A DNA stretch of 64,000 nt, taken from NCBI RefSeq assembly GCF_900637635.1, contig NZ_LR134383.1:764501-828500 (forward strand), given 5' to 3'. A program made the position numbers and the translations under genes. The stretch comes from Legionella jordanis. Lineage in GTDB: Bacteria; Pseudomonadota; Gammaproteobacteria; Legionellales; Legionellaceae. Shown in pieces: positions 1,697-32,126 of the stretch (within the stretch, counting starts at the first letter, position 1; every line of letters begins with the position of its first letter). A model generated the notes under the pieces. It had not been told where the DNA came from, did not search any database, and was given only the letters and a program-made list of their open reading frames with translations.

Positions 1697-3541
1697 ATGA
1701 ATTCCTCAGATTTGACGACCTTTCTTGCTAATTTAAGTAATGATCCTGGTGTTTATCGCATGCTCGATAACGAAGGGACAGTTCTTTATGTGGGTAAGGC
1801 ACGCGACTTAAAGAAGCGGGTTAGCAGCTATTTTAATAAGCAAAATACAGGGGGCAAAACCCGTTCTTTAGTCAGTCAAATCGCTGATATTGAAGTCAGC
1901 ATTACTCGTAGTGAGACTGAAGCGTTACTGCTGGAGAGTAATTTAATCAAAGCGCTGCGCCCAAAATACAATGTATTGCTAAGAGACGACAAATCCTACC
2001 CCTATATTCATGTCACTGGCCATGAATTTCCTCGAATGGAGCTTTATCGAAGTAAGAAAAAGCCCCAAAAAGGGGAGTTCTATGGGCCATTTCCCAGCGT
2101 TGCAGCGGTTCGCGATACATTAAGTACCATTCAGAAAGTTTTTAAGATCAGGAATTGTCGAGACAGCTATTTTAATGCCCGCTCACGTCCTTGCTTGCAA
2201 TATCAAATTAAACGTTGCGGCGCGCCTTGTACAGGTTACATTTCTGCTGAGGAATACAAACAGGCGCTTATGGATGCAAGACGTTTCCTGCAAGGGAAAT
2301 CGCAACTTATCCTCGATGATTTGGAAAAAAGGATGGAGCAAGCCGTATCGCATCTTGCCTTTGAAGAAGCAGCCAGCCTGCGGGATCAAATCAAGAGTTT
2401 GCGTTTAATCCAGGAGCAGCAAGGGGTGGTTCAACTCAGGGGGGATGCGGATGTGATTGCCATCGAAGCGCAACCTGGGTTTGCTTGCATACAATGTGTC
2501 ACTATTCGAGATGGGCGTGTTCTGGCAAGCAACAGCTTCTTCCCTACGGTACCTCAGCGAGAGTTTGTTGAAGATGAACAAGCTGAGAACGATTTATGGC
2601 AGCAGGTTTTTGAAGCGTTTATTGCCTTTTACTATATTGATACGCCACAAAGAATCCCAGAACTTATTTTAAGCAATCAGGCCATTGATGATCTGAAAGC
2701 TCTGGAAACGATGTTGAGTGAATTGCGTGGTAAACGGTGTCAAATCCAAACAAAACCAAGAGGCGTAAAAGCTCGGTGGATGGATTTTGCTCTTAATAAT
2801 TTAAATCTATCCGTGGCCGACCATATAGCTTCCTCGGCCACCATGAAAAAACGGTATGATGCCTTAGGGCAATTTTTACAACGCCAGCAAGCCATTGACC
2901 GAATGGAATGCTTTGATATAAGCCATACCCAAGGGGAAGCAACGGTTGCTTCTTGTGTGGTTTTTGACAGTGAAGGCCCCAAAAAAAGTGATTATCGACG
3001 TTTTAACATTCATGGCATTACCCCCGGTGATGATTACGCCGCCATGGAGCAAGCCCTTACCCGGCGCTTCAAGAAACTGTTACAAGAGCAAAATTTGCCG
3101 GATGTTCTGATTATTGATGGCGGTAAAGGGCAAGTTGCGGTCGCAAAGCGCATTTTTGAGCAATTGGGAATTTTTTCAGTAACTCTACTTGGCATAGCCA
3201 AGGGGCCAGAACGGAAAGCAGGTTGGGAGCGTCTTATTTTATCGAGTGAAGACCGAGAGTTAAGTTTGCCTGCTGATTCACCAGCACTGCATTTACTGCA
3301 GCACATTCGCGACGAGGCCCACCGCTTTGCAATCACTTCTCATCGTAAAAAACGGCAAAGCAGCAGTCTGGATTCTTCGCTGGAAACCATAGAAGGCGTT
3401 GGCCCCAAAAGACGGCAGGCACTATTACGCCGCTTTGGCGGATTGCGTGAGTTGGCCCGTGCCCCTATTGAGGAAATTGCCAAGGTAAATGGCATTAATG
3501 AAGCATTGGCAAGAAGAATTTATGAGCATTTTCATCAATAG
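1697..3541 (+). CDS. uvrC: excinuclease ABC subunit C
   Basis: Nuclease subunit of the UvrABC nucleotide excision repair system; it makes both incisions around a bulky lesion. Domains in order: GIY-YIG nuclease at about residues 16-95 ([21 protein letters not shown]), a Cys-containing region ([15 protein letters not shown]) at about 165-180, a UVR motif near 200-235, the RNase H-like C-terminal nuclease at about 265-540 (ECFDISH, IDGGKGQ), and a C-terminal helix-hairpin-helix pair at about 560-614 ([18 protein letters not shown]). At 614 residues it is full length. It lies 100 bp after letA on the same strand and may be partly co-transcribed. It converges on the hydrolase gene with only 18 bp between stops, so there is little room for a terminator. 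Confidence 0.97.
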
Positions 3542-3559
3542 GTCTAGCTAATGTCTAAA

Positions 3560-4630
3560 TTAGTCGTATAAATTTCTATAGCTCTCCGGATGTCGCTTTT
3601 TAATCCAATTTAAGATTTTTGGCCAAAGTTGTTGATGGGCAATGGGAGAGACTAAAGGCCCTAAATGCTGAAACATGGGACCGTTATCACTCATATAAGT
3701 CAAAATTTCTGCAGATGCATTGTGGGCGACATGAAGTCCCTGGATTGTTGAATCTGGAGGAACAATAAGTCCAGGGGGGTTCACTATGGCTAAAGTTGCA
3801 GTGTGCAAATGGCTGATGCCGGTTTGGCCTTTGCCAATTTTTAAAGTTCCTTTCAAAAAGCGATCCTGACGGAATAACTGTTCAACTGTTTCTTTAAACA
3901 ACGGCCAGGGCAGTGGCAATTCATCATAAGTCCATCTTCCCACTTTGCTGTGTATTTCCAAAGCGAGTGGGTCAAGGCAGCTGGCTACCCAATCCATAAC
4001 ACGCTGCATTTGAAAGACTTCAGGTGAAGCGTTGAGGCTTAGCCAATTGATGAAAGATCCGGAAACTGATGGGCTTGTAAGAGGTCTAATCATCTCCAAA
4101 TCGGGAATAGCGGCTGCGGCTTTCGCAATAGGGCCGCCATGTTTCCCAAAAACCAAAGGTGAATCAACCAGAATCAATTCTGAAACGAGTTCTGGAAATA
4201 GCGTTGCAAAAATAGCAGCAAAAGTTCCACCTAAGGAGTGCCCAGCCAGTATTCTTGGTTCTGTTCGGCCGCTGTCGGCTTCAATGACTTCCATGGCTTC
4301 AAGCGGCAAATAATGGACATACTCCAGCAAGCCATAATTTTCTTCCCTTTCCGTTGGAATAGTCCATTCCAGTAAATACAGCTTCAGGCCAATACTTAAA
4401 AGCTGCTGCACGACACTGACTCTGGGGATTAAATCCCAGATGTAAGGGCGTTTAAATGGTGCTGGAATAATTAAAAGATTTAAGCCCGCATCAGACACAC
4501 GGCTGTGATATTTGCGAATCCTGGCTCCGGGAAGGTCAGCAATGATTTGATAGGGTGTTTCCTGAGGGTCAAGCCCGAATTGGCCTATCCATTTTCCAAT
4601 ATTTCTGCGGGTTAAGTCCATCCATTGCAT
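3560..4630 (-). CDS. alpha/beta hydrolase related to PhaC-type polyhydroxyalkanoate synthases
   Basis: A 356-residue cytoplasmic alpha/beta hydrolase. The N-terminal layout (NLLIIPAPFKRPYIWDL, then VVQQLLSIGLKLYLLEW) is that of class III/PhaC-like proteins. The nucleophile elbow reads AGHSLGG near residue 130, with serine where true PHA synthases have cysteine. A late His in LGPLVSPIAHQQ is a plausible catalytic His. It could be a PHA depolymerase-like or esterase enzyme rather than a synthase; the substrate is unknown. No phaR/phaE partner is adjacent. It is transcribed towards uvrC and divergently from enhA, sharing a 205 bp upstream region. The family assignment is fairly firm, the activity is not. 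Confidence 0.7.
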   Translation of the reverse strand: MQWMDLTRRNIGKWIGQFGLDPQETPYQIIADLPGARIRKYHSRVSDAGLNLLIIPAPFKRPYIWDLIPRVSVVQQLLSIGLKLYLLEWTIPTEREENYGLLEYVHYLPLEAMEVIEADSGRTEPRILAGHSLGGTFAAIFATLFPELVSELILVDSPLVFGKHGGPIAKAAAAIPDLEMIRPLTSPSVSGSFINWLSLNASPEVFQMQRVMDWVASCLDPLALEIHSKVGRWTYDELPLPWPLFKETVEQLFRQDRFLKGTLKIGKGQTGISHLHTATLAIVNPPGLIVPPDSTIQGLHVAHNASAEILTYMSDNGPMFQHLGPLVSPIAHQQLWPKILNWIKKRHPESYRNLYD

Positions 4631-4835
4631 TGTTAAATCCTATTTGCTCTCCTTATTTAAGAGTAATAAGAAATTGCAAGACCTGCAAAAATTTAATTCA
4701 GCTTCTATAAGAATGTCAGTTTTATTTCTAAACTTTCTGAGGGAATGACCGAAATAAAACTTTAGAAAAGGCGTTTGTATTTTAAGCACGATTTTTGCAT
4801 AAGCATAATTAAATCAAAAGAGCAGGGGAATCACA

Positions 4836-5561
4836 ATGAAGAAACTACTACAAGTGATTGCACTCAGTACGCCGGCCTTGGCAATCCATGCAAATACTTA
4901 CTATGGTACCGGACTTTGTGGATACCCGCAATACGAATGCATCAAGGTGAGCAGCGGTCAGACCTGGGAGTCCCTTTTTCCTGATCCGCAACAGCGAGAC
5001 ATCGTTCAAAGGCTCAATCGAACCTACAATCACCTGTGGGCAGGAAAAGAGATAGCCGTACCTAAAAATATGGCGAATAAAACCATGTTGGATTTCTCAC
5101 CTTTTCCTTTAAAAATAGAGCCGGGCGAAAAACAAGTGATTGTCGACCAGGATAAATTAGCCTGGGCTGCTTATGATGTGCAAGGCCATTTGGTGAAATG
5201 GGGGCCAATCTCATCGGGTAGCGACGTGTGTTCAGACCATAGCAGCAAAACCTGCAGAACCATGACAGGAATCTTTCATTTTTTCAGCAAGGAAAATGAA
5301 AAATGCCGCTCTAATGTCTTCCCTGTCGGTAAAGGCGGAGCCAAAATGCCTTATTGCATGTACTTTCATAAAGGGTTTGCCCTCCATGGTGCGCAAGACA
5401 TTCCAGGCTATCGGGCCAGCCACGGTTGTGTGAGGATGTTCACCGAAGATGCAAAGTGGATGAATCATGAATTTATTGATTTATCTAATGATAAAACGCA
5501 GACCTTAGGAACGAAAGTTATTGTTCGACCCCTTATCGCACAGAGTGAGAAAAAGCAATGA
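4836..5561 (+). CDS. enhA: enhanced entry protein EnhA, L,D-transpeptidase (YkuD) domain
   Basis: First gene of enhABC, a locus linked to efficient host-cell entry by Legionella. The 241-residue product has a signal peptide (cleavage near residue 20, ...LAIHAN), a LysM-like segment at about 36-78 (SSGQTWESLFPD ... WAGKEIAVP), and a YkuD catalytic domain at about 100-230. The catalytic signature is complete: H184 in ALHGA and SHGCVRM with C198. A periplasmic peptidoglycan-remodelling L,D-transpeptidase is therefore expected. Six further cysteines, some probably disulfide-bonded, lie outside the active site. Its stop overlaps the enhB start by 4 bp (ATGA), implying translational coupling. Confidence 0.9.
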   Translation: MKKLLQVIALSTPALAIHANTYYGTGLCGYPQYECIKVSSGQTWESLFPDPQQRDIVQRLNRTYNHLWAGKEIAVPKNMANKTMLDFSPFPLKIEPGEKQVIVDQDKLAWAAYDVQGHLVKWGPISSGSDVCSDHSSKTCRTMTGIFHFFSKENEKCRSNVFPVGKGGAKMPYCMYFHKGFALHGAQDIPGYRASHGCVRMFTEDAKWMNHEFIDLSNDKTQTLGTKVIVRPLIAQSEKKQ

Positions 5562-6118
5562 AAACAAAAACTCAACTAAAAAAGAGCCTTCTTTTGCTAT
5601 CTGCCTTATGTGTTGTAATGGGAGCTGCTGAGGCAAAAAAATCAACTGCAGACAAAGATCCGCAGGCAGTAAAAGAAGCAGATAATATGAAAAATCCCAT
5701 CGGTTGTTACGACACGGGTTATCAGTTCGATTTAAAAACACTGCATTTATTGCCGAGTATGGCAGGGAAAAGGCAGTCGTTGTATTTTATATTCAATGCC
5801 TTAAATCAACCGGTTAATTTATTTCAAATGCGTGATGGTGAAAGTTCTCGGAGTTTATATTTAAATCACAGCATTAATGCTCGTCAGTGGGCTGGGTTAT
5901 CAACCACAGAAAAGAAAGTTAAATTCATTTGCACGGTGCCAGAAGCAAAAAATCCATATGGAAAAATCGTGGATTGCGCGGAAAGTTTAAAAGTCTGTGA
6001 GTACACCAATGTACGTTATGGCTTAAACAATCGCGGCAATTTTTGGATCGTCAATAGTAATGATAAAAATGGCGCAATAAGGGATGTGGTGCATTACGGT
6101 GTTATTCCAGGTATGTGA
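5558..6118 (+). CDS. enhB: enhanced entry protein EnhB
   Basis: Identified mainly by position between enhA and enhC, plus size and signal peptide. The 186 residues begin MKTKTQLKKSLLLLSALCVV, a Sec signal peptide likely cleaved near AEA (residue 25), and give a secreted or periplasmic protein with three cysteines in the mature part (IGCYD, FICTVP, VDCAESLKVC region). No catalytic motif is visible. The mature domain looks like a small beta-rich fold. The function is not known in detail. The start overlaps the enhA stop, and a 68 bp spacer precedes enhC, so all three genes probably share a transcript. Confidence 0.85.
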   Translation: MKTKTQLKKSLLLLSALCVVMGAAEAKKSTADKDPQAVKEADNMKNPIGCYDTGYQFDLKTLHLLPSMAGKRQSLYFIFNALNQPVNLFQMRDGESSRSLYLNHSINARQWAGLSTTEKKVKFICTVPEAKNPYGKIVDCAESLKVCEYTNVRYGLNNRGNFWIVNSNDKNGAIRDVVHYGVIPGM

Positions 6119-6186
6119 TGCATGAACAAAAATTCTGCGCGATAAGCCGCTGTTATGCGGTAACATAAGAGAGAAGGGGAATTACC

Positions 6187-9100
6187 ATGAAATCATTCGT
6201 ACCATGGTTTTGTTTGGTTGCAGCCACTGGAAGCCAATCCGTTTATGCAGTGAATGGTCTTGAGGCTTATCGTCAGGGTAACTATCCTCTAGCTGCCCAG
6301 ACTCTTGCTAAAGAAGCAGAGAAAGACCCTATTGCCAATTATTATTTAGGCCGCATGCGATTGTACGGTTATGGAGAACTAAAAAATAATGCGATGGCGC
6401 TTCGATATTTTGAGCAAGCGGGTGAAAAAGGAGTTTTGGAGGCACAGCTGTTGCTGGCACGTTATCATTTAATTGATGCAAAAGATCCAGAAAAAGCTTT
6501 ATATTGGTTTAAAAAAGCCGCCGCAGCAGGTGATTTAAACGCGCAATTGTATTGTGCAGCCGCGAATTTATTTGGGTTTGGCACCAAAGTAAATGCGGAT
6601 GCCGCGAGAAAATATTACATTGATGCCGCCAAACGCGGAAACGCCATTGCCCAATATACCATCGCTGAATATTTCCTGGATGCCCGCAATGCAGCCAATA
6701 AAAAATTAGGTCTGATTTGGTTAAACAAAGCGGTTGAGCAGGGCAATCCAAAAGCTCAACTGAAAATGGCTGAATTACATCTGACGGGTAAATTGCTGCC
6801 TAAGGATGAAGTAAAAGCCAATGCACTCATCAATCAGGCAGTAGCCCAGGGCTATATTCCTGCCCTACGTAAACTAGGGGAATTGGCGGTTGCTAAAAAT
6901 GATTTTGATGCGGCCAAGGATTGGTATACCAAAGCTGCTGCCGCTAATGATACCGAAGCCGAAATGGCTCTGGCTAATTTGTACCTCGACAGCAAGAATA
7001 AATTATATAATCCAAAAACCGCATTTATGTGGGTATTGCAGGCCGCACGCAATGGCTCTGCAGAGGCTCAAACTATCCTGGCTGGCATGTATCAATCGGG
7101 TAACGGGGTTTCAGCTGATCCAGCGCTGGCGGCACAATGGCAACAAAAAGCGAAGGAGACTGCGGCCTTTAAGGCAAAAACAAAGCCCGCAATCGAAGTA
7201 TCTCAATGGCTTAGCAATGGCAAGATAAGCAATTTTAATATCGACGGTTTTCGTTTAGGCGGTATTTACAACGCCTGGAAAAATCCAAGGGCATTAAAGG
7301 AGAACAATTATAATGTTGCTCCGCTCATGGAAACAGTCAGTCGTGGAGAACTTTATAATCCCAAATTTGCAATGATGCAGCCAAAGGAAATTGCCATCAG
7401 TGAGTATTTTGACATGATTGCATCCGCACTCAATCAAGATAGCGCCAACTCCTTCTTCCAACAACGTTATTCCCTGGATCCACAGATGGAAGCGCTTCAA
7501 CTTACTTCATCCCTTGCGGTGGCTCATCCAGAAAACTATTCTGTAGCTCAGCAAAATCTACCCTATGCTTTTTCTGATGATCCGCAACCCTTTAATTATC
7601 TCGATCAATTAACCAGGGGCTGGCTATATCAATCCAATATGCAAGCCGTTTTGAGTGAATTATATGGACGAGCCATTCTTGGCGAATCTGCCGCCCAATT
7701 TCAGCTCGGCCAACTTTATGACTATGGCATTGCAGTGGCTAAAAATATTCCTCAAGCCATTACTTATTACGAATTGGCAGCCATGCAACAAGACGTCAGG
7801 GCTGAATACAATTTAGGTCTCCTTTATTTGGAAGGAAAGACTACGCCCGTTGATTACTACAAGGGAATAAGCTGGCTAACCGATGCGGCGTTTAAAGGTA
7901 ACGTCCATGCACAATATGCCTTGGCCAATATTTACGAGAAAGGGTTTAAGGATCCAGCGGGTAACCTAGTTATTCAACCGGATCCCCAGCGAGCTGTGTC
8001 GATGTATTATTTGGCATCATCCAACCATTTTGGTCCTGCGCAATACCGATTGGCTGAGTATTTGGTTAAACAAAAAAACAGCGGTTTAAGCGTCGCTGCC
8101 AAAACCAATCGTGCCAAATTGATTAAACGGTTGTATGCGGGCGCAGTTCAGGAAGGGGTAGCGGAGGCCAATTTACCTCTGGCTTTCTACAATGCCATGG
8201 ATCAAGATCCTAAAAAACAGGCCCATGCCTTCGAAGTGGCTAAACAAGAGGCGAAAAAAGGCAACAGCTATGCGGCCTTGCTCTTAGGGATCATGTATGA
8301 GCGTGGCATTGCTGTAGCAGCCAATGATGCAGAATCACTATACTGGTACCAACAGGCCGGCCTCAACCCTGTTAACTCCTTTATCCTGGGTACTTATTAT
8401 GCTGAAGGTTCAGGTGTGAGCAAGGATTTGGAACGAGGGAAAGCGTTACTGCAACAAGCCGCCGATGCTGGGTTCTCCTATGCCAATCTAAATTTGGCGG
8501 TATTAAAGCAGGAACATGCTGAGGATTTTCTGCCTGAACTAGATAAGGCTCGACAACTTGGCAACAGCACAGCTGGTTTACTTCTTGCAGATTACTACCT
8601 CGCTTCAGGCAGTGATCCCAAAAACATGCAACAAGCCAGAGATATTTATCAGTATTTTGCAGATAAGGGTGATAAGGAAGCTCAACTGAAATTGGCATAT
8701 CTCTATGACCAGGGTCTGGGTACCGAACAAAATCCTGAGCTTGCCGCGAGATGGTATACGGCAGCTGCTGAGCAAGGTCAACCTACTGCGCAATTCCTAT
8801 TGGCTCGCATGCATCAATTAGGACGGATTGGCAATGCCCCTGACTATGAGCAAGCGAAGAAATGGTATTCAGCTTCCAAAAGCAATTATCCTCGCTCTGC
8901 AGTAGCCTTGGGGTTTATTTATGAAACGGTTGATGATGATTACCAGCGTGCTTCCGAAAACTATCAACTAGCAGCTGAAAAGAATAATAAGGCCGGCCAA
9001 TTCAACTTAGGCTTAATCTATGAAGATGGCAAAGGCATGTCAGTAGATTATACAAAAGCTAAAACTCTCTTTAATCAGGCTGCTGATGCAGGTCTTAAAC

Positions 9101-25591: not shown

Positions 25592-26848
25592 ATGCCACAA
25601 CCCTTAATTAATATCAGTCGCAGGCAAGCCTTAATTTACGCTGGCTTCTTAGTGATGTATGAATTTTTAACTTATATTGCCAACGACATGATCATGCCTG
25701 GCATGGTGAAAGTGGTAAGTTCCTTCCACGGTCCTGAGACCGCCATTGCCAGTTCGTTAACGGCCTATATCCTCGGGGGTGCCAGTTTACAATTATTCCT
25801 GGGCCCCATTTCAGATCGTTATGGACGGCGCCCGGTGATGATCTTTGGTGCCACTTTTTTCTTTGTTTGCACGTTGTTGATTGCTTGCTCCACCTCTATT
25901 GAACAATTTTTAGTTGCTCGTTTCTTTCAAGGAATGGGGTTGTGCTTCATTGCAGTCATTGGTTACGCCACTTTGCAGGAAATCTTTGCTGAAATGGATG
26001 CTGTTCGATTGATTGCAATCATGGCTAATGCGGCCATCCTCGCTCCTTTAATCGGGCCATTGCTCGGAGCGGTTTTCGTCCATTATTACAGCTGGCGGTT
26101 TATTTTCATTATCATCGGTTTTTTTGCTGTTATAGCCTTATGGGGGCTGTATCGTTTTATGCCTGAACCCGTCGGGCAAACTAAAACGGATGGCGAGGAA
26201 ATCAAAGCCATTTCGCTCTCTCCGCGAATTGTAGCGAAAAACTACAGACACTTATTTTTAAATCCTTCGGTATGTTTTGGCTCGGTAGGGGTAGGCTTTT
26301 TGGGGCTTCCTTGTATTGCCTGGATCGCTTTAGCTCCCGTTATTCTAATTAAAGATGCCAACTTGACCGTTATAGAATATGGCTTATGGCAAATGCCTCT
26401 TTTTGGCGCAAGCATTGCAGGCAACTGGTTTTTACAAAGACTAACCTATCGCGGATCACTGAAGAGAATCCTTTTAACTGGTTCAATAATTTCGTTGTTA
26501 AGTCTCCTATTGACGGCTTTAATGCCATTGCTGTTAGGCGGAAGTTATCTGTGGTTAATGCCAGGATTAATTGTCTATTTCTTTGGTTTAGGGGTAGCAA
26601 CAGCTCCCCTGAACCGCTTAATTCTTTTCTCAACCACGGTAGGTAAAGGCACAACTTCGGCATTTATGACCATGATGGGGATGATCATTCAAGCATTGGG
26701 GATTGAAGTCGCTAATTATCTTTACGGCACCCACAATAATATTCTTTTTGGCCTTTTATGTGCATTCGTGGGCATTATCTATTTTGTATTCCTTATGATT
26801 ACCTTGGCATTTAATAAAAAAGAAATGGATTTGGAGAAGCAGACTTAG
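25592..26848 (+). CDS. MFS multidrug exporter, MdfA-like
   Basis: A 418-residue proton-coupled major facilitator with 12 predicted membrane helices. Helix 1 (MYEFLTYIANDMIMPGM) keeps the acidic pair E24 and D32, corresponding to E26 and D34 of E. coli MdfA, which couple drug export to protons. The MFS motif A reads GPISDRYGRRP between helices 2 and 3. It should export cationic or neutral drugs or metabolites. It precedes the cyanophycin genes by 90 bp on the same strand with no obvious terminator between, but a functional link is speculative. Confidence 0.85.
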   Translation: MPQPLINISRRQALIYAGFLVMYEFLTYIANDMIMPGMVKVVSSFHGPETAIASSLTAYILGGASLQLFLGPISDRYGRRPVMIFGATFFFVCTLLIACSTSIEQFLVARFFQGMGLCFIAVIGYATLQEIFAEMDAVRLIAIMANAAILAPLIGPLLGAVFVHYYSWRFIFIIIGFFAVIALWGLYRFMPEPVGQTKTDGEEIKAISLSPRIVAKNYRHLFLNPSVCFGSVGVGFLGLPCIAWIALAPVILIKDANLTVIEYGLWQMPLFGASIAGNWFLQRLTYRGSLKRILLTGSIISLLSLLLTALMPLLLGGSYLWLMPGLIVYFFGLGVATAPLNRLILFSTTVGKGTTSAFMTMMGMIIQALGIEVANYLYGTHNNILFGLLCAFVGIIYFVFLMITLAFNKKEMDLEKQT

Positions 26849-26938
26849 AGGAACTCTCTGATTTTATTTACTTAAACGGGCTATGTTGCTATCTTCATAT
26901 TTGCTCCTAAAAATTACGATAATCAAAGGAATGATTAA

Positions 26939-29563
26939 GTGAATATTTTAAATATTAAAATCCTAAGAGGCCCTAATTATTGGTCAAATTATCGCCAAAA
27001 ACTGATTGTGCTTAAATTGGATTTGGAAAAGTATGAGGATCTTCCTACAAACCTTTTACCTGAATTTAAAGAAAAGCTTAGTCAATTAATCCCCAGTCTC
27101 TACAGCCATACCTGTTCAATCGGTTGTGAAGGCGGTTTGTTTAAGAGGATTGAAGAGGGAACCTGGTTGGGGCATGTGATTGAACATATTGCCCTCGAGC
27201 TGCAGAATTTGGCCGGCATGGATTGTGGTTTTGGCAGGACTTATGGTGCTCATGAGCATGGCGTCTACCATGTTATTTTTAGTTATGACATTGAAGAGGC
27301 TGGAGTTTATGCAGGTTATGCTGCAGTTAACATTGCAAGGTGTTTGGCTGAAGGAAAAGATTACCATTTGTTGGAAGAAGACCTTGCTGAATTAAAACGG
27401 TTGTTTGAAAAAGAGCAACTAGGACCAAGTACACAAGCTCTTTTGGATGAAGCAAAAAAAAGAAAAATCCCATACACACGCTTACCGGAGAGTTCGTTAA
27501 TTATTTTTGGCCAGGGATGTAAGCAAAAACGAATTTGGGCCAGTGTTTCTGAAAATACCTCTGCAATTGGGGTTGACCTGGCTGCGAATAAAGAGATGAC
27601 CAAAAATTTACTGTTTCGCTCTTTTATTCCTGTTCCAGAATGGCAAACCGTCCGCTCATTGTCTGAATTGCATGTGGCTGTTGATAAACTTCATTTCCCT
27701 CTCACAATAAAACCTATCAATGGCAACCATGGACGAGCCGTCACCACTAATATTTTTAGTAAAGAAAAGGCATTGCACGCTTTTAATTTAGCGAAAGAAG
27801 TAGCGGATGAAGTCATCGTAGAAAGATTTATTCAGGGAGATGATTACCGGTTTCTTGTGATTAATAACGAAGTGGTTGCTGTTGCCAAGAGAACGCCTGC
27901 ATTCGTTGTGGGAGATGGCATATGCAGCATTCAAGAGCTAATAGATAAGGCAAATTGTGATCCAAAAAGGGGCAAGGCTCATGAGAATTTGTTAACTGCC
28001 ATAAAAGTAGATGAAGATACCCTCTCCATTTTGGCTGAACATGATTTAAGTCTTGAGACTGTGCTGCCCGGCGGGAAAATTTTATATCTTAAACATACCG
28101 CCAATTTAAGCTCGGGTGGTACGGCGACTGATGTTACTGATATAGTTCACCCTGATAACAAGGCTCTGGCCCAACGCGTTGCTCGTTTGATTGGTCTTGA
28201 CGTCTGTGGCATTGATATCATTTGTAAAAACATAAGACGTCCTCTTGCAAATGGAAACGGTGCGATCATCGAAGTAAATGCTGGGCCAGGTTTAAGGATG
28301 CATTTGGCACCCAGCGAAGGTTTAGCAAGAAATGTTGCCATTCCCTTTATTGATATGCTCTACCCTCGAGGAAGCTCGGCCAGAATTCCAATTACTGCAG
28401 TAACAGGAACAAATGGCAAAACCACAGTAGTGCGTTTGATTGCCTATCTGGCCCAAAAAGCCAAACATTCTGTTGGTTTCAGCACCACTGAGGGAATTTA
28501 TTTAAATGGTAACTTGGTATACCGTGGCGATTGCAGCGGGCCATTGAGCGCTGCTGCAATCTTGCAGGATCCTTCCGTAGATTTTGCTGTCCTGGAATGT
28601 GCACGAGGTGGCATCTTAAGATCTGGATTGGGGTTTGACCAGTGCGATATCAGCATTATTACAAACATTAGTGCCGATCATCTGGGGTTGGAAGATATCC
28701 ATAGCCTTGAGGAGCTAACGCGTGTTAAGGCAGTTGTAGCTTACAGTACAAAGAAAGAAGGTTATGCCATTTTGAATGCGGATGATGAACGCGTTTACGG
28801 GCTTAAAGAGGATTTAGACTGCCAGGTTGCGTTATTTGCACTGGAGGAAACTCAGCGCATTAAGGATCATTGCTTATCGGGTGGGCTGGCGGCCTATGTG
28901 GCAGATAATGTGATTGTGGTACAACGTGAACAAGAAAAACTTGAATTGGCACAATTAAACGAGATTCCGCTGAGTTTTAATGGTACCGCTGTTTTGATGA
29001 TTAAAAACATCCTTCCTGCTGTTCTTGCCGGAGTAATTAGCGGCTTTTCTGCTAAGCTGATCCAGCAGAGTTTGTATGAATTTCAGCCCTGTTTTGAAAA
29101 CACGCCTGGAAGAATGAACATCATTAACTTTGGTGATTTTCAAGTCATGGTTGACTATGCTCATAATGAAGATGCTTATGTTGAGCTAAGTAAATTTTTA
29201 ACCTCCATCCCTAGCAAGTATAAAATTGGCATCATTGCTGCATCTGGAGATAGAAGGGATGAAGACATTAGGCGTTTAGGTTATTGGGCGGCTCAAATTT
29301 TTGATGACATTATTATTCGCCATAATAAAGACGATCGGGGCAGGAGCAACGAAGAAACAACCAGATTGCTGCGGGAGGGAATTGAATCAGCCCAGTTAAA
29401 GCGAAAAGTAATGGTCATCTCCGAAGAGTTCTCAGCAGTTCGTCACGCCATATCAAGCGCTTCTCCGGACAGTTTTATTTTTTATGCAGTGGATGATGTG
29501 TTTGATGCAGCCGAATTTATATTGGAAGAAAAACGGAAATTCGAGGAAGAGTTTATAATGTAA
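26939..29563 (+). CDS. cphA: cyanophycin synthetase
   Basis: ATP-dependent ligase that builds cyanophycin, a poly-aspartate backbone with arginine on each side chain, as cytoplasmic granules. The 874 residues show the three-part CphA1 plan. An N-terminal domain lies at about 1-160, an ATP-grasp domain at about 200-480 (KPINGNHGRAV; ATP-binding and magnesium residues in IIEVNAGPGLRMH), and a Mur-ligase-like domain at about 485-870. The last has P-loop TGTNGKTT at about 489-496, SADHLGLED and VDYAHNEDAY. The start is GTG at 26939 with AAGGA 8 bp upstream. The stop overlaps cyanophycinase by 1 bp. Confidence 0.93.
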   Translation: MNILNIKILRGPNYWSNYRQKLIVLKLDLEKYEDLPTNLLPEFKEKLSQLIPSLYSHTCSIGCEGGLFKRIEEGTWLGHVIEHIALELQNLAGMDCGFGRTYGAHEHGVYHVIFSYDIEEAGVYAGYAAVNIARCLAEGKDYHLLEEDLAELKRLFEKEQLGPSTQALLDEAKKRKIPYTRLPESSLIIFGQGCKQKRIWASVSENTSAIGVDLAANKEMTKNLLFRSFIPVPEWQTVRSLSELHVAVDKLHFPLTIKPINGNHGRAVTTNIFSKEKALHAFNLAKEVADEVIVERFIQGDDYRFLVINNEVVAVAKRTPAFVVGDGICSIQELIDKANCDPKRGKAHENLLTAIKVDEDTLSILAEHDLSLETVLPGGKILYLKHTANLSSGGTATDVTDIVHPDNKALAQRVARLIGLDVCGIDIICKNIRRPLANGNGAIIEVNAGPGLRMHLAPSEGLARNVAIPFIDMLYPRGSSARIPITAVTGTNGKTTVVRLIAYLAQKAKHSVGFSTTEGIYLNGNLVYRGDCSGPLSAAAILQDPSVDFAVLECARGGILRSGLGFDQCDISIITNISADHLGLEDIHSLEELTRVKAVVAYSTKKEGYAILNADDERVYGLKEDLDCQVALFALEETQRIKDHCLSGGLAAYVADNVIVVQREQEKLELAQLNEIPLSFNGTAVLMIKNILPAVLAGVISGFSAKLIQQSLYEFQPCFENTPGRMNIINFGDFQVMVDYAHNEDAYVELSKFLTSIPSKYKIGIIAASGDRRDEDIRRLGYWAAQIFDDIIIRHNKDDRGRSNEETTRLLREGIESAQLKRKVMVISEEFSAVRHAISSASPDSFIFYAVDDVFDAAEFILEEKRKFEEEFIM

Positions 29564-30444
29564 TGAGAGTTGCGATGGCAAAGCCTAAAGGAAAATTACT
29601 GATTATTGGGGGGGCTGAAGATAAAGTTGATCAGCCTCCCGATATTATGGAGCAGAAAAAAGAATTTTCTCGCTATGAAATTCTAAATGAGCTACTCCCC
29701 AGCTCGAGAAAGAAAAAGATAGAACTCATCACCACTGGCTCAGAATTCCCTGAGGAGGTTAAAAAAACTTATCAAAAAGTTTTTCTTGAGCTTGGTTATC
29801 CGCACATTGGTTTCCTTCATATCCAGGAGCGCTCAGAAGCCAGGCAGAAAAGTTATTTAACGCGCGTTCAAGAGGCTGGTGCTATCTTTCTGACTGGAGG
29901 AGATCAATTTCGGCTTGCCACCATTCTTGGCGGGACTCCGGTCGTCGAAATCATCAAAGAGAGGTATCTTTGCGACAGTGAATTTATTGTAGCAGGTACC
30001 AGCGCTGGAGCCATGGTAATGTCCTCCGTAATGATCACCAGTGGCGGATTAACAGAAGCTTTGCTCTATCGTAATTTAGCGACTTCATCTGGATTGGGTT
30101 TTTTAACTACATGCATCATTGATACTCATTTCATTAAACGCGGGCGGTTTGGACGTTTGGCTCATGCAATTATTATGAATCCCGAACAATTGGGTATCGG
30201 TTTGGGTGAAGACACTGCTTTAATCATCAAAGATGGAAGTGATGCAGAATGTCGCGGCTCAGGCATGGTGGTCATCATAGATGGCAGAGACATTGGACAA
30301 ACCAACATCACGCAAGTGAAAGAGGGAGAGGCTGTTTTTGTTGAAAATTTAAGGGTTCATCTTCTGGTTAAAGGCTGCCATTTTTCGATTGCTACCCGAG
30401 AACTGGCCAATCCTGCTATGTCCTCCAGCTATAAGACGAAATAA
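29563..30444 (+). CDS. cphB: cyanophycinase
   Basis: Serine peptidase of family S51 that degrades cyanophycin to beta-Asp-Arg dipeptides in the cytoplasm. The 293 residues include the nucleophile elbow GTSAGA (Ser at about residue 147), the conserved DTHFIKRGRFGRL that lines the site, and GLGEDTALII. No signal peptide is seen, so it acts on internal polymer, not as an exported scavenging enzyme. The ATG at 29563 overlaps the cphA stop (TAATG); an internal ATG at 29575 is an alternative start. Synthesis and degradation are encoded together, so control is probably post-translational or by substrate. Confidence 0.92.
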   Translation: MRVAMAKPKGKLLIIGGAEDKVDQPPDIMEQKKEFSRYEILNELLPSSRKKKIELITTGSEFPEEVKKTYQKVFLELGYPHIGFLHIQERSEARQKSYLTRVQEAGAIFLTGGDQFRLATILGGTPVVEIIKERYLCDSEFIVAGTSAGAMVMSSVMITSGGLTEALLYRNLATSSGLGFLTTCIIDTHFIKRGRFGRLAHAIIMNPEQLGIGLGEDTALIIKDGSDAECRGSGMVVIIDGRDIGQTNITQVKEGEAVFVENLRVHLLVKGCHFSIATRELANPAMSSSYKTK

Positions 30445-30472
30445 TTTTTGGCATCACTGACGGATTAAACAA

Positions 30473-31381
30473 ATGACAATTGCAATTGCAGTACACGGTG
30501 GGGCAGGACCTAATACGCCATTTTTAAAAGCTCATATGAAAGAAGCAGAGCAAGGTTTGGCTGATGCAGCTCGTGCCGGTTATGGGGTTTTGCAAAGCAA
30601 TGGCAGCGCTGTCGATGCAGTGGAAGAAGCAGTGAAAATTCTTGAAGATAACCCGATGTTTAATGCGGGTCGAGGCTCTTCACTCAATTGCGATGGGGAA
30701 GTTGAAATGGATGCTTCCATAATGGATGGTCGCAAGTTTGATGCAGGTGCAGTTTCGATGGTGCGCTTGGTCAAAAATCCGATAAGTTTAGCGCGTCTCA
30801 TCATGGAAAAAACCAATCATGTACTATTGTCGGGTTATGGAGCCCTGGAATTCGCTAAACGCCATAACTTAACCTTAAAGCCTCCTGCCTATTTCATAGC
30901 TGAACACAAATATGACGAATTCGAAGAGCTTCGTGATGAAAGTTATGAAGACATTCTGCTGAAAAAAATTTATGGCACGGTGGGGGCAGTTGCTCTTGAT
31001 CATTTTGGAAATCTGGCAGCTGCTACCTCTACGGGGGGGACAAGCAATTGCCTCCCAGGGCGTGTCGGTGATAGCTGCCATATTGGCGCTGGCTGTTATG
31101 CAAATAATAATACTTGTGCGGTGTCAGGAACTGGAGAGGGGGAATTCCTGATAACCCGAGTGATTGGCCATAGCATTTCTGTGATGTGTGAAATGCATAA
31201 TATGGGTATTCAGGAAGCTTGTCAGAATGTCATTCATGTGCGCAACAAAGATTGTGGTGGAGAAATGGGTGTGATTGCCCTTAATCCCCAGGGGGATGTG
31301 GGTATTGCATTCAATACGGAAGTTATGAAAAGGGCTTGGATTGGTCCTGATGGCCAATTACACGTTCAAATAAAAAAATAG
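30473..31381 (+). CDS. iaaA: isoaspartyl peptidase / L-asparaginase (Ntn hydrolase)
   Basis: Plant-type asparaginase family enzyme that cleaves beta-aspartyl dipeptides, here most likely the beta-Asp-Arg released by cyanophycinase, giving free aspartate and arginine. The 302-residue precursor has FNAGRGSSLNCDGEVEMDA in the alpha part and the autocleavage site YGTVGAVA with nucleophile Thr169. STGGTSNCLPGRVGDSCHIGAG forms the substrate pocket, including the Arg and Asp that bind the alpha-carboxylate and amine. It follows cphB by 28 bp. It completes a three-step storage and recycling pathway. Confidence 0.92.
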   Translation: MTIAIAVHGGAGPNTPFLKAHMKEAEQGLADAARAGYGVLQSNGSAVDAVEEAVKILEDNPMFNAGRGSSLNCDGEVEMDASIMDGRKFDAGAVSMVRLVKNPISLARLIMEKTNHVLLSGYGALEFAKRHNLTLKPPAYFIAEHKYDEFEELRDESYEDILLKKIYGTVGAVALDHFGNLAAATSTGGTSNCLPGRVGDSCHIGAGCYANNNTCAVSGTGEGEFLITRVIGHSISVMCEMHNMGIQEACQNVIHVRNKDCGGEMGVIALNPQGDVGIAFNTEVMKRAWIGPDGQLHVQIKK

Positions 31382-31583
31382 AGGAGGTTCATCCATCAAC
31401 AAGTTAAGCCTAAATGGTGTTCAGCGCCATTCCTCCCGTGCAAATACTAAAAGATTAAAAAATAGACTATGCGTGCAGTAGAGGGTAAAGATTCAAATCT
31501 GATTTCTAATCTTTATTCAATAAAGTGAACAATCGCCTTATTCTTCCTAATCTTTTCAAAATAGAGTATTATCCTTCCTTTGC

Positions 31584-31612
31584 TTTAAATAGAACCAATT
31601 TAGTACTATATT
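31584..31612 (+). promoter_or_regulatory. candidate promoter of the suf operon
   Basis: TTTAAA (31584-31589) and TATATT (31607-31612) are spaced by 17 bp and lie about 50 bp before the Rrf2 gene. The -10 lies inside the first copy of the direct repeat at 31598-31613, which would suit repression by an operator-bound regulator. The match to consensus is moderate. Confidence 0.4.
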
Positions 31613-31647
31613 AACAAAGTAAATAAGACTTATTTGGTACTAGATTA
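31598..31647. repeat. two operator-like direct repeats before the Rrf2 regulator
   Basis: ATTTAGTACTATATTA (31598-31613) and ATTTGGTACTAGATTA (31632-31647) agree at 14 of 16 positions and are spaced 34 bp apart, close to three helical turns. The core TAGTACTA of copy 1 is itself a palindrome. Copy 1 overlaps the candidate -10, and copy 2 ends 17 bp before the regulator ATG. They are good candidates for autoregulatory Rrf2 sites. Confidence 0.5.
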
Positions 31648-31664
31648 TTTGTGATGAGGGTGCT

Positions 31665-32126
31665 ATGCTGCGCATCAGCAAATTGGCTGATTATGGAACA
31701 GTTGTTATGGTTTATTTGGCGAAGCATTCAGAAACATTGTGCAATGCTCGCGATATTGCCTTACATACTCATTTGTCTGTGCCCACCGTCAGCAAAATTC
31801 TAAAACGTTTAACCGCTGCAGGTTTACTCAATTCCGTTCGTGGTGTGACCGGTGGTTACCGTTTGCAACGTTCAGCTGCCGACATTTCAGTGTCTCAAAT
31901 CATTTATGCTCTGGAGGAGCAGCGTGGATTGACCGAATGCAGCTTACAGCATAGCGAGTGCTCTTTGCAGGGCGTGTGTCATGTCAAGGGAAATTGGCGT
32001 TTAATCAGTCAGGCAATAGAAGCAGCACTGGATAGTGTCAGTCTGGAAGTTCTAGCAAAGCCAACTCTGCAAGCGGTCGAAATCGATCGCATTCGACAGT
32101 TGGCAAGTGGAGTTAGTCATGGCTAA
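31665..32126 (+). CDS. Rrf2-family regulator of the SUF system
   Basis: A 153-residue iron-sulfur-sensing repressor of the IscR/SufR type. The winged helix-turn-helix lies at about residues 8-72 ([35 protein letters not shown]). Three cysteines in the pattern C92-x6-C99-x5-C105 match the cluster-ligating region of IscR closely. It heads the suf gene block and overlaps sufB by 8 bp. By analogy the cluster-loaded form represses the operon and loss of cluster under iron limitation or oxidative stress lifts this; that is inference. Confidence 0.88.

What the first reader, a model, noticed from the sequence alone, without database searches (positions are those of the whole stretch)
26939..31381. 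Complete cyanophycin synthesis-and-recycling operon in a Legionella-like genome
Seen: cphA, cphB and an isoaspartyl peptidase in one strand with a 1-bp overlap and a 28-bp gap, and intact active-site motifs in all three (TGTNGKTT, GTSAGA, Thr169 of YGTVGAVA). Known: the three enzyme families make cyanophycin, cut it to beta-Asp-Arg and split the dipeptide. Inferred: the bacterium can bank nitrogen, carbon and arginine as an insoluble polymer, perhaps when amino acids are plentiful in the host and for survival outside it. Pathogens of this genus are better known for polyhydroxybutyrate storage, so a nitrogen store would be a useful addition.
Basis: partly seen in the sequence, partly recalled or inferred. 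Interest (0 to 1): 0.72.

Follow-up and report, generated by a model that had tools for sequence, protein, structure and literature searches.

The report
Legionella-family cyanophycin storage operon
A Legionella-family bacterium carries a complete, intact three-gene set for making and breaking down the storage polymer cyanophycin, a known gene set in this family, and elsewhere in its genome a second synthetase in which one of three active sites looks dead.

Summary
In detail: cphA (26939-29563), cphB (29563-30444) and an isoaspartyl peptidase gene (30473-31381) lie on one strand with the stated overlap and gap, and their catalytic residues are intact. CphA is CphA1-type with all three active sites (primer-making N, ATP-grasp G, Mur-ligase M). 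That the cell can make and recycle cyanophycin is well supported by sequence but not new: Cazalet et al. 2010 named the same trio in L. longbeachae. Here the order cphA-cphB-iaaA was seen in 48 of 52 genomes in which I found cphA, among 143 Legionellaceae genomes searched. The operon is accessory: 7 of 22 genomes of the window's genus have CphA, and two relatives show an empty site. The genome has argG but no argB or argC over the cut-off, so the polymer would bank mostly imported arginine (inference). That pattern is the surprising part; its function is untested. The operon itself is an ordinary member of a known kind.

The parts
26939..29563 (+). cphA: cyanophycin synthetase 1, 874 aa, GTG start
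   Evidence: TIGR02068, 1154.1 bits over cut-off 850; closest solved chain 7lg5 cyanophycin synthase, E 5.9e-241
26939..27403 (+). CphA N domain (about residues 1-155) with Cx19HxxEH primer-generating site: C59, H79, E82, H83
   Evidence: motif defined in PMC9262961
27416..28363 (+). CphA G domain (ATP-grasp, about residues 160-475), adds Asp; His264 = SuCphA1 His267; E215 of SuCphA1 is Asp here, as in 45 of 47 full-length operonic family members
   Evidence: PMC9427784
28376..29518 (+). CphA M domain (Mur-ligase-like, about residues 480-860), adds Arg; P-loop TGTNGKTT 489-496, ECARGG, Asp580/His581 = SuCphA1 D585/H586
29563..30444 (+). cphB: cyanophycinase (peptidase S51), 293 aa; GTSAGA (Ser147), DTHF (His189), GEDTA (Glu216); catalytic roles of these residues recalled
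30473..31381 (+). iaaA-type isoaspartyl peptidase / L-asparaginase, 302 aa; Thr169 in GTVGAVA
26849..26938 (+). 90-bp gap between the MFS gene and cphA, which may hold the operon promoter (inferred); no ArgR-box enrichment upstream of family cphA genes
   Evidence: promoter-like matches in 26500-31800 are no more than in shuffles

Best explanation
The three genes form one operon for cyanophycin turnover. CphA1 lengthens a poly-Asp chain in its ATP-grasp (G) domain and attaches Arg to each new Asp side chain in its Mur-ligase (M) domain, and its N domain cuts some chains to supply primers. CphB cuts the polymer to beta-Asp-Arg dipeptides, and the Thr-nucleophile peptidase splits these to Asp and Arg. 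Because early arginine-synthesis genes appear missing, the polymer probably banks arginine (with nitrogen and carbon) taken up when amino acids are plentiful. The enzyme chemistry is inferred from close homology and intact catalytic residues; that one transcript carries the genes, that the polymer is made, and when, is inference. A second, orphan CphA elsewhere in the same genome keeps the N and G sites but has a degraded M site, so it probably modulates or assists the main enzyme rather than replacing it (inference).
For: Family scores and solved relatives. Catalytic residues of all three CphA sites present. In the family sequences found, GTSAGA is kept in 51 of 52 CphB (one gap), DTHF in 52 of 52, GEDTA in 49 of 52; GTVGAVA in 47 of 48 peptidases, the other being GTAGAVA. 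Gene order seen in 48 of 52 cphA-bearing genomes. One cyanophycinase match in the genome, over the cut-off. argB and argC have only sub-cut-off matches while argG passes, in a one-contig genome rated 100% complete; this parallels L. pneumophila, which lacks many early arginine genes but can use ornithine or citrulline (PMC3920079, passages). The same trio and role were proposed for L. longbeachae (PMC2824747, passages). Mechanism from PMC9262961 and PMC9427784 (sections and passages).
Against: No polymer, transcript or assay was seen. 15 of 22 genomes of the same genus have no CphA over the cut-off, so it is dispensable. The peptidase is below the beta-aspartyl-peptidase equivalog cut-off, a 59% identical second copy exists, and the cluster-borne IaaA studied in PMC10206079 was not specific. 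Only argB, argC and argG were searched. No ArgR box was found upstream of cphA. One substrate-contact residue, E215, is Asp.
Confidence: 0.87

Rival explanations
1. The operon is mainly a scavenging route that degrades cyanophycin or beta-aspartyl peptides taken from prey or neighbours, with CphA idle.
For: Cyanophycinase-peptidase clusters without cphA are known as utilisation loci (PMC10206079); the peptidase class is promiscuous.
Against: CphA is intact at all catalytic positions checked and sits with cphB and iaaA in 48 of 52 cphA-bearing genomes. By eye the CphB start shows no signal peptide (no predictor run), and no importer lies among the three genes.
Confidence: 0.06
2. CphA here makes a related but different polymer, for example richer in Lys, or serves amino-acid buffering rather than storage.
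For: Some CphA1 enzymes take Lys at lower efficiency (PMC10206079 passage); E215 of SuCphA1, which contacts the Arg side chain in TeCphA1, is Asp in 45 of 47 full-length operonic family members.
Against: S166, H267, R309, N394, G456, R458 and the M-site residues checked are all kept.
Confidence: 0.07
3. The orphan second CphA is a pseudogene on the way out, with no role (this concerns the second copy only and does not exclude the best explanation of the operon).
For: No cphB or iaaA near it and conserved M-site residues lost; second copies in G129 and G130 have lost most of G and M.
Against: 875-aa open frame; 66 of 66 invariant G positions and 33 of 35 N positions kept against 52 of 67 in M (Fisher p about 2e-5 for M versus N+G). 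One-module losses occur in separate lineages.
Confidence: 0.4

Closest known systems
Legionella longbeachae llo2537-llo2536-llo2535 (Cazalet et al. 2010, PMC2824747)
   Same: Putative cyanophycin synthase, cyanophycinase and dipeptidase, with the same proposed role
   Different: Another species; the passages I read mention no second synthetase, N-domain priming or arginine supply
SuCphA1 / TeCphA1 (7LG5, 7WAC)
   Same: Full-length N-G-M homology; catalytic residues checked are present
   Different: Cyanobacterial enzymes with solved structures; E215 is Asp in the window enzyme
CphA2 (cyanobacterial beta-Asp-Arg polymerase; that chains 7TA5 and 8FXH are CphA2 is recalled)
   Same: Like the orphan second CphA: intact ATP-grasp module, no working Mur-ligase module
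   Different: CphA2 lacks the N-domain motif (PMC9262961), the M P-loop and the M lid (PMC9427784); the orphan keeps the N motif, most of the P-loop and the lid, and is closest to Legionella CphA1. PMC9427784 reports that TeCphA1 does not exert CphA2 activity
Cyanophycin gene clusters with IaaA (Sharon and Schmeing 2023, PMC10206079)
   Same: cphA1-cyanophycinase-iaaA clustering, in 49 of 153 genomes that have all three in that survey
   Different: Tighter in Legionellaceae here (48 of 52 genomes in which I found cphA)

Membership tests
Cyanophycin synthetase 1 (CphA1) | Full-length match over TIGR02068 cut-off | tested here: met
   1154.1 bits, cut-off 850, residues 2-863
Cyanophycin synthetase 1 (CphA1) | G-domain catalytic residues (H267, R309, N394, R458 of SuCphA1/TeCphA1) | tested here: met
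   All present; E215 is Asp; Arg323 and Ser396 were not checked one by one
Cyanophycin synthetase 1 (CphA1) | M-domain P-loop K499/T500, E558, D585/H586, R731, H748 | tested here: met
   All present
Cyanophycin synthetase 1 (CphA1) | Makes Asp-Arg polymer | not testable with these tools
   No assay
Primer-independent CphA1 | Cx19HxxEH in the N domain | tested here: met
   C59, H79, E82, H83 in the window enzyme and in 47 of 47 full-length operonic family members
Cyanophycinase CphB | TIGR02069 over cut-off; Ser in GTSAGA, His in DTHF, Glu in GEDTA (triad recalled) | tested here: met
   217.9 bits, cut-off 126.6; motifs
IaaA isoaspartyl peptidase | Asparaginase_2 family and Thr nucleophile | tested here: met
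   327.5 bits; Thr169 aligns to residue 1 of solved beta chains
IaaA isoaspartyl peptidase | NCBIfam beta-aspartyl-peptidase equivalog cut-off (567 bits) | tested here: not met
   241.4 bits; so described as IaaA-type, not filed as that equivalog
CphA2 (for the orphan second CphA of this genome) | M P-loop and M lid absent; N-domain motif absent | tested here: not met
   AGTSGKTT and lid motifs present, N motif present; not filed as CphA2 though it may work like one

The most novel reading that the evidence does not exclude
Legionellaceae repeatedly divide the three activities of cyanophycin synthetase between two genes. In the window's genome a full CphA1 is paired with a second enzyme that keeps the primer-cutting (N) and backbone (G) sites but has lost Arg addition (M). 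In a relative matched to L. adelaidensis the plasmid operon copy lacks the G domain while the other copy lacks the N site. In genome G142 a tandem pair has the N motif in one member and the better-kept G and M modules in the other, though that one has Gln at the catalytic His267. Such splitting would let the cell tune primer-making against polymerisation by expression, which a single fused enzyme cannot do, and a two-component regulator pair sits beside some copies. The window genome's second copy would act as a primer-maker or regulatory subunit, or as a convergent recycler of beta-Asp-Arg.
Probability: 0.35. Interest if true: 0.6.

Novelty: new member of a known kind. Interest (0 to 1): 0.42.

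Why it matters
The operon makes cyanophycin turnover a recurrent accessory trait of a family of intracellular bacteria; in this genome it sits beside an apparent need for imported arginine or its precursors, a setting unlike nitrogen-fixing cyanobacteria. If the one-module paralogs are functional, they are natural counterparts of the engineered CphA1 heterodimers with active sites on different protomers (PMC9262961) and offer a way to ask how primer-making and polymerisation are balanced.

Tried and rejected
Arginine repressor control: scored the best ARG-box (consensus recalled) in up to 220 bp upstream of 48 operonic cphA genes; mean 12.48 of 16 against 12.2 in mononucleotide shuffles, 2 of 48 at 14 or more against 5.2% of shuffles; rejected.

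A recalled RpoS-like -10 pattern occurred upstream in 7 of the same 48 and not in the window's genome; dropped.

A viral carrier: no relative in viral contigs by a six-peptide scan. Plasmid carriage: 156 plasmid records had a match, each under 60% identity; 30 were listed, among them one Legionella record (L. adelaidensis). The summary counts 8 Legionella records; the other 7 were not listed and not examined.

Bacteroidota origin: the only named loci from the genome scan were 10 Bacteroidota at 51-55% identity. That scan used six exact peptides of one protein and may leave out near relatives, so it cannot show a donor; used as an outgroup only.

Filing the orphan second CphA as CphA2: tested, not met.

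Rows dropped before counts: region G108 (L138) was fetched but fell under 150 bits to the window CphA. The 47 'full-length operonic' CphAs leave out second copies, frames under 850 aa (G098, G098b, G109), the G-less G116b, and the divergent G053 and G142; they include G039, whose contig ends after cphB. The Bacteroidota reference of 9 leaves out 4 N-dead second copies and L052 (split frame). The 52 genomes are those whose regions I chose to fetch from a ranked, capped list, so 52 of 143 is a lower bound. The regulator count is a lower bound because flanks differ in length. The marker tree used 60 fetched CarB genes plus the window's, out of the 121 genomes with a match.
Full report
Observation. 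One search lists three + strand ORFs at exactly the reported coordinates, with a 1-bp overlap between cphA and cphB and a 28-bp gap before the third gene. Searches place them as cyanophycin synthetase (TIGR02068, 1154.1 bits, cut-off 850), cyanophycinase (TIGR02069, 217.9, cut-off 126.6) and an Asparaginase_2 protein (327.5, cut-off 27). The last scores 241.4 on the beta-aspartyl-peptidase equivalog, below its cut-off of 567, so its class is firm and its precise substrate is not.

Anatomy of CphA. The closest solved chains are cyanobacterial cyanophycin synthases. CphA1 has three active sites: N (metal-dependent cutting that makes primers, motif Cx19HxxEH), G (adds Asp) and M (adds Arg), as described in PMC9262961 and PMC9427784 (named sections and passages). 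In SuCphA1 numbering the window enzyme keeps C59, H79, E82, H83; H267, R309, N394, G456, R458; and N497, G498, K499, T500, E558, D585, H586, R731, H748. E215 is Asp, as in 45 of 47 full-length operonic family members. I expect it to be complete and primer-independent (inference).

CphB and the peptidase. GTSAGA is present in 51 of 52 family CphB sequences (the other has a gap there), DTHF in 52 of 52 and GEDTA in 49 of 52; GTVGAVA is present in 47 of 48 peptidases and GTAGAVA in the other. Thr169 aligns with residue 1 of solved mature beta chains. The genome has one cyanophycinase match, over the cut-off, and a second Asparaginase_2 gene 59% identical to the operon's. [quoted passage not shown]

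Distribution. In the window's genus 7 of 22 genomes, the window's own included, carry CphA over the cut-off. I searched 143 family genomes with the second CphA protein and fetched 56 regions from its ranked list and 7 from the genus search. With the window, 63 regions in 52 genomes hold a CphA gene or fragment. In 48 of the 63, one per genome and so 48 of 52 genomes, the order is cphA-cphB-iaaA on one strand. The four without are G039 and G109, where the contig ends, G053 and G142. In the survey of PMC10206079, 49 of 153 genomes with all three genes have them clustered. Genome G116 is Legionella adelaidensis by matching contig length and coordinates, which ties the family to Legionella.

Inherited or acquired. 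G010 has the operon at the same place, between an MFS gene and the Rrf2-suf genes. Of 10 regions examined, G009 and G003 have MFS and Rrf2 adjacent with about 115-130 bp between them, an empty site (G003 has the operon elsewhere); in G004, G013 and G014 the acid phosphatase gene is followed directly by Rrf2; G002 has other genes between MFS and Rrf2; the remaining four were uninformative here. A CarB marker tree of 61 rows and the CphA trees (76 rows; 30 rows with a mixture model) disagree in places: G124, G126 and G128 group with G020 in CphA but with G125, G129 and G130 in CarB. I read this as gain at this spot before G000 and G010 split, on a background of loss and exchange within the family. 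The CarB tree has 17 weak forks of 58, so this is a lean, not proof.

Physiology. The window's own genome has only sub-cut-off matches to argB and argC but a clear argG (no other arginine gene was searched). L. pneumophila likewise lacks many early arginine genes yet can use ornithine or citrulline (PMC3920079, passages). Cyanophycin in this cell would then mostly bank imported arginine or material made from imported precursors (inference). No arginine-repressor box was enriched upstream of cphA.

A second synthetase. The genome holds another CphA at G000:C1:1221010-1223637, 57-58% identical to the window's, with no cphB or iaaA in the 19-kb region fetched. It passes the TIGR02068 cut-off (1040.8 bits). 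Its M module has TGTNGKTT changed to AGTSGKTT, ARGG to SSEG, D585 to T, GDRRDED to QADKSEED, and DDRGRS lost. Of positions invariant in 47 operonic family CphAs and 9 Bacteroidota CphAs it violates 2 of 35 in N, 0 of 66 in G and 15 of 67 in M; leave-one-out reference sequences violate at most 2, 4 and 4 (Fisher p about 2e-5 for M versus N+G). Against a dead M site: the residues at K499, T500, E558, R731 and H748 look kept (motif rows), and the published M-dead mutant changed both D585 and H586, whereas only D585 is lost here.

Other second copies. The same test gives: G125b N 9/35, G 0/66, M 38/67; G100b, G101b, G113b and G128b N 14-18, G 3-4, M 0-1; the G116 orphan copy N 22, G 3, M 4; the G116 operon copy N 0, G 56 (domain deleted), M 0; G129b and G130b N 7-9, G 42-43, M 38-39; G120b N 0, G 3, M 2, i.e. 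no module lost; the G142 tandem: first copy N 11, G 29, M 56, second copy N 27, G 10, M 16 with Gln at H267; G053 (single divergent copy) N 7, G 7, M 17. So not every second copy shows a clean one-module loss. Eleven of the 52 genomes have a second copy (G000, G100, G101, G113, G116, G120, G125, G128, G129, G130, G142); a twelfth label, G098, is probably one gene split over two contigs. The trees place these copies in several separate groups; G000b and G116 pair at 91/87, both on long branches, and share a neighbouring regulator pair.

Regulator link. A LuxR-type response regulator, with a histidine kinase in all but G109, lies in 12 of 63 cphA regions: G000b, G003, G098, G099, G109, G116, G125b, G129b, G130b, G131, G132, G134 (the G098 kinase match is weak, 26%). 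In the window's genome it sits by the orphan copy, not by the operon.

Companions elsewhere. Plasmids of Roseateles and two Deinococcus carry CphA-like 'Mur ligase family' proteins with a kept M site but lost N and G residues; the Roseateles one lies beside a full cphA. Paired cphA copies are in print for activated-sludge bacteria, one longer and one shorter in Tetrasphaera (PMC10687191, passages), so paired copies as such are known. I saw no title or abstract on module-wise splitting in Legionella in the listings; one search found 4 papers with both words. The library holds open-licence papers only.

Verdict. The operon is real, complete and ordinary for the family, and already reported in L. 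longbeachae (PMC2824747, passages). The second, module-degraded synthetase is the part a specialist may not expect.

Noticed in passing
G000:C1:1221010-1223637 (L002:1498-4125): Second, orphan CphA in the same genome with intact N and G sites and a degraded M (Arg-adding) site.
   Followed up: yes
L135:5178-7064 and L119:5284-7857 (genome G116, matched to L. adelaidensis): Plasmid operon copy of CphA lacks the G domain while the other copy lacks the N site: complementary losses.
   Followed up: partly
L134:757-2880 and 2858-5368 (G142): Tandem CphA-like pair: the first keeps the N motif with G and M degraded, the second lacks the N motif and keeps M-site residues, with Gln at the G-site His267.
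   Followed up: partly
L037:783-1439 and 5669-7252: LuxR-type response regulator and PAS histidine kinase near cphA; a relative of the pair or of the regulator lies in 12 of 63 cphA regions of the family.
   Followed up: partly
L015-L025, L030-L036: Many family genomes carry ATP-grasp proteins of about 320-445 aa matching only the G domain of CphA; none is among the 17 matches of the window's genome.
   Followed up: no
L044, L045, L046, L050: Bacteroidota loci with two cphA genes close together, the second lacking the N-domain motif but with G and M motifs intact.
   Followed up: partly
L217:5819-7624: Roseateles plasmid: a 601-aa Mur-ligase-type companion with intact M-site residues beside a full cphA and a cyanophycinase.
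   Followed up: partly
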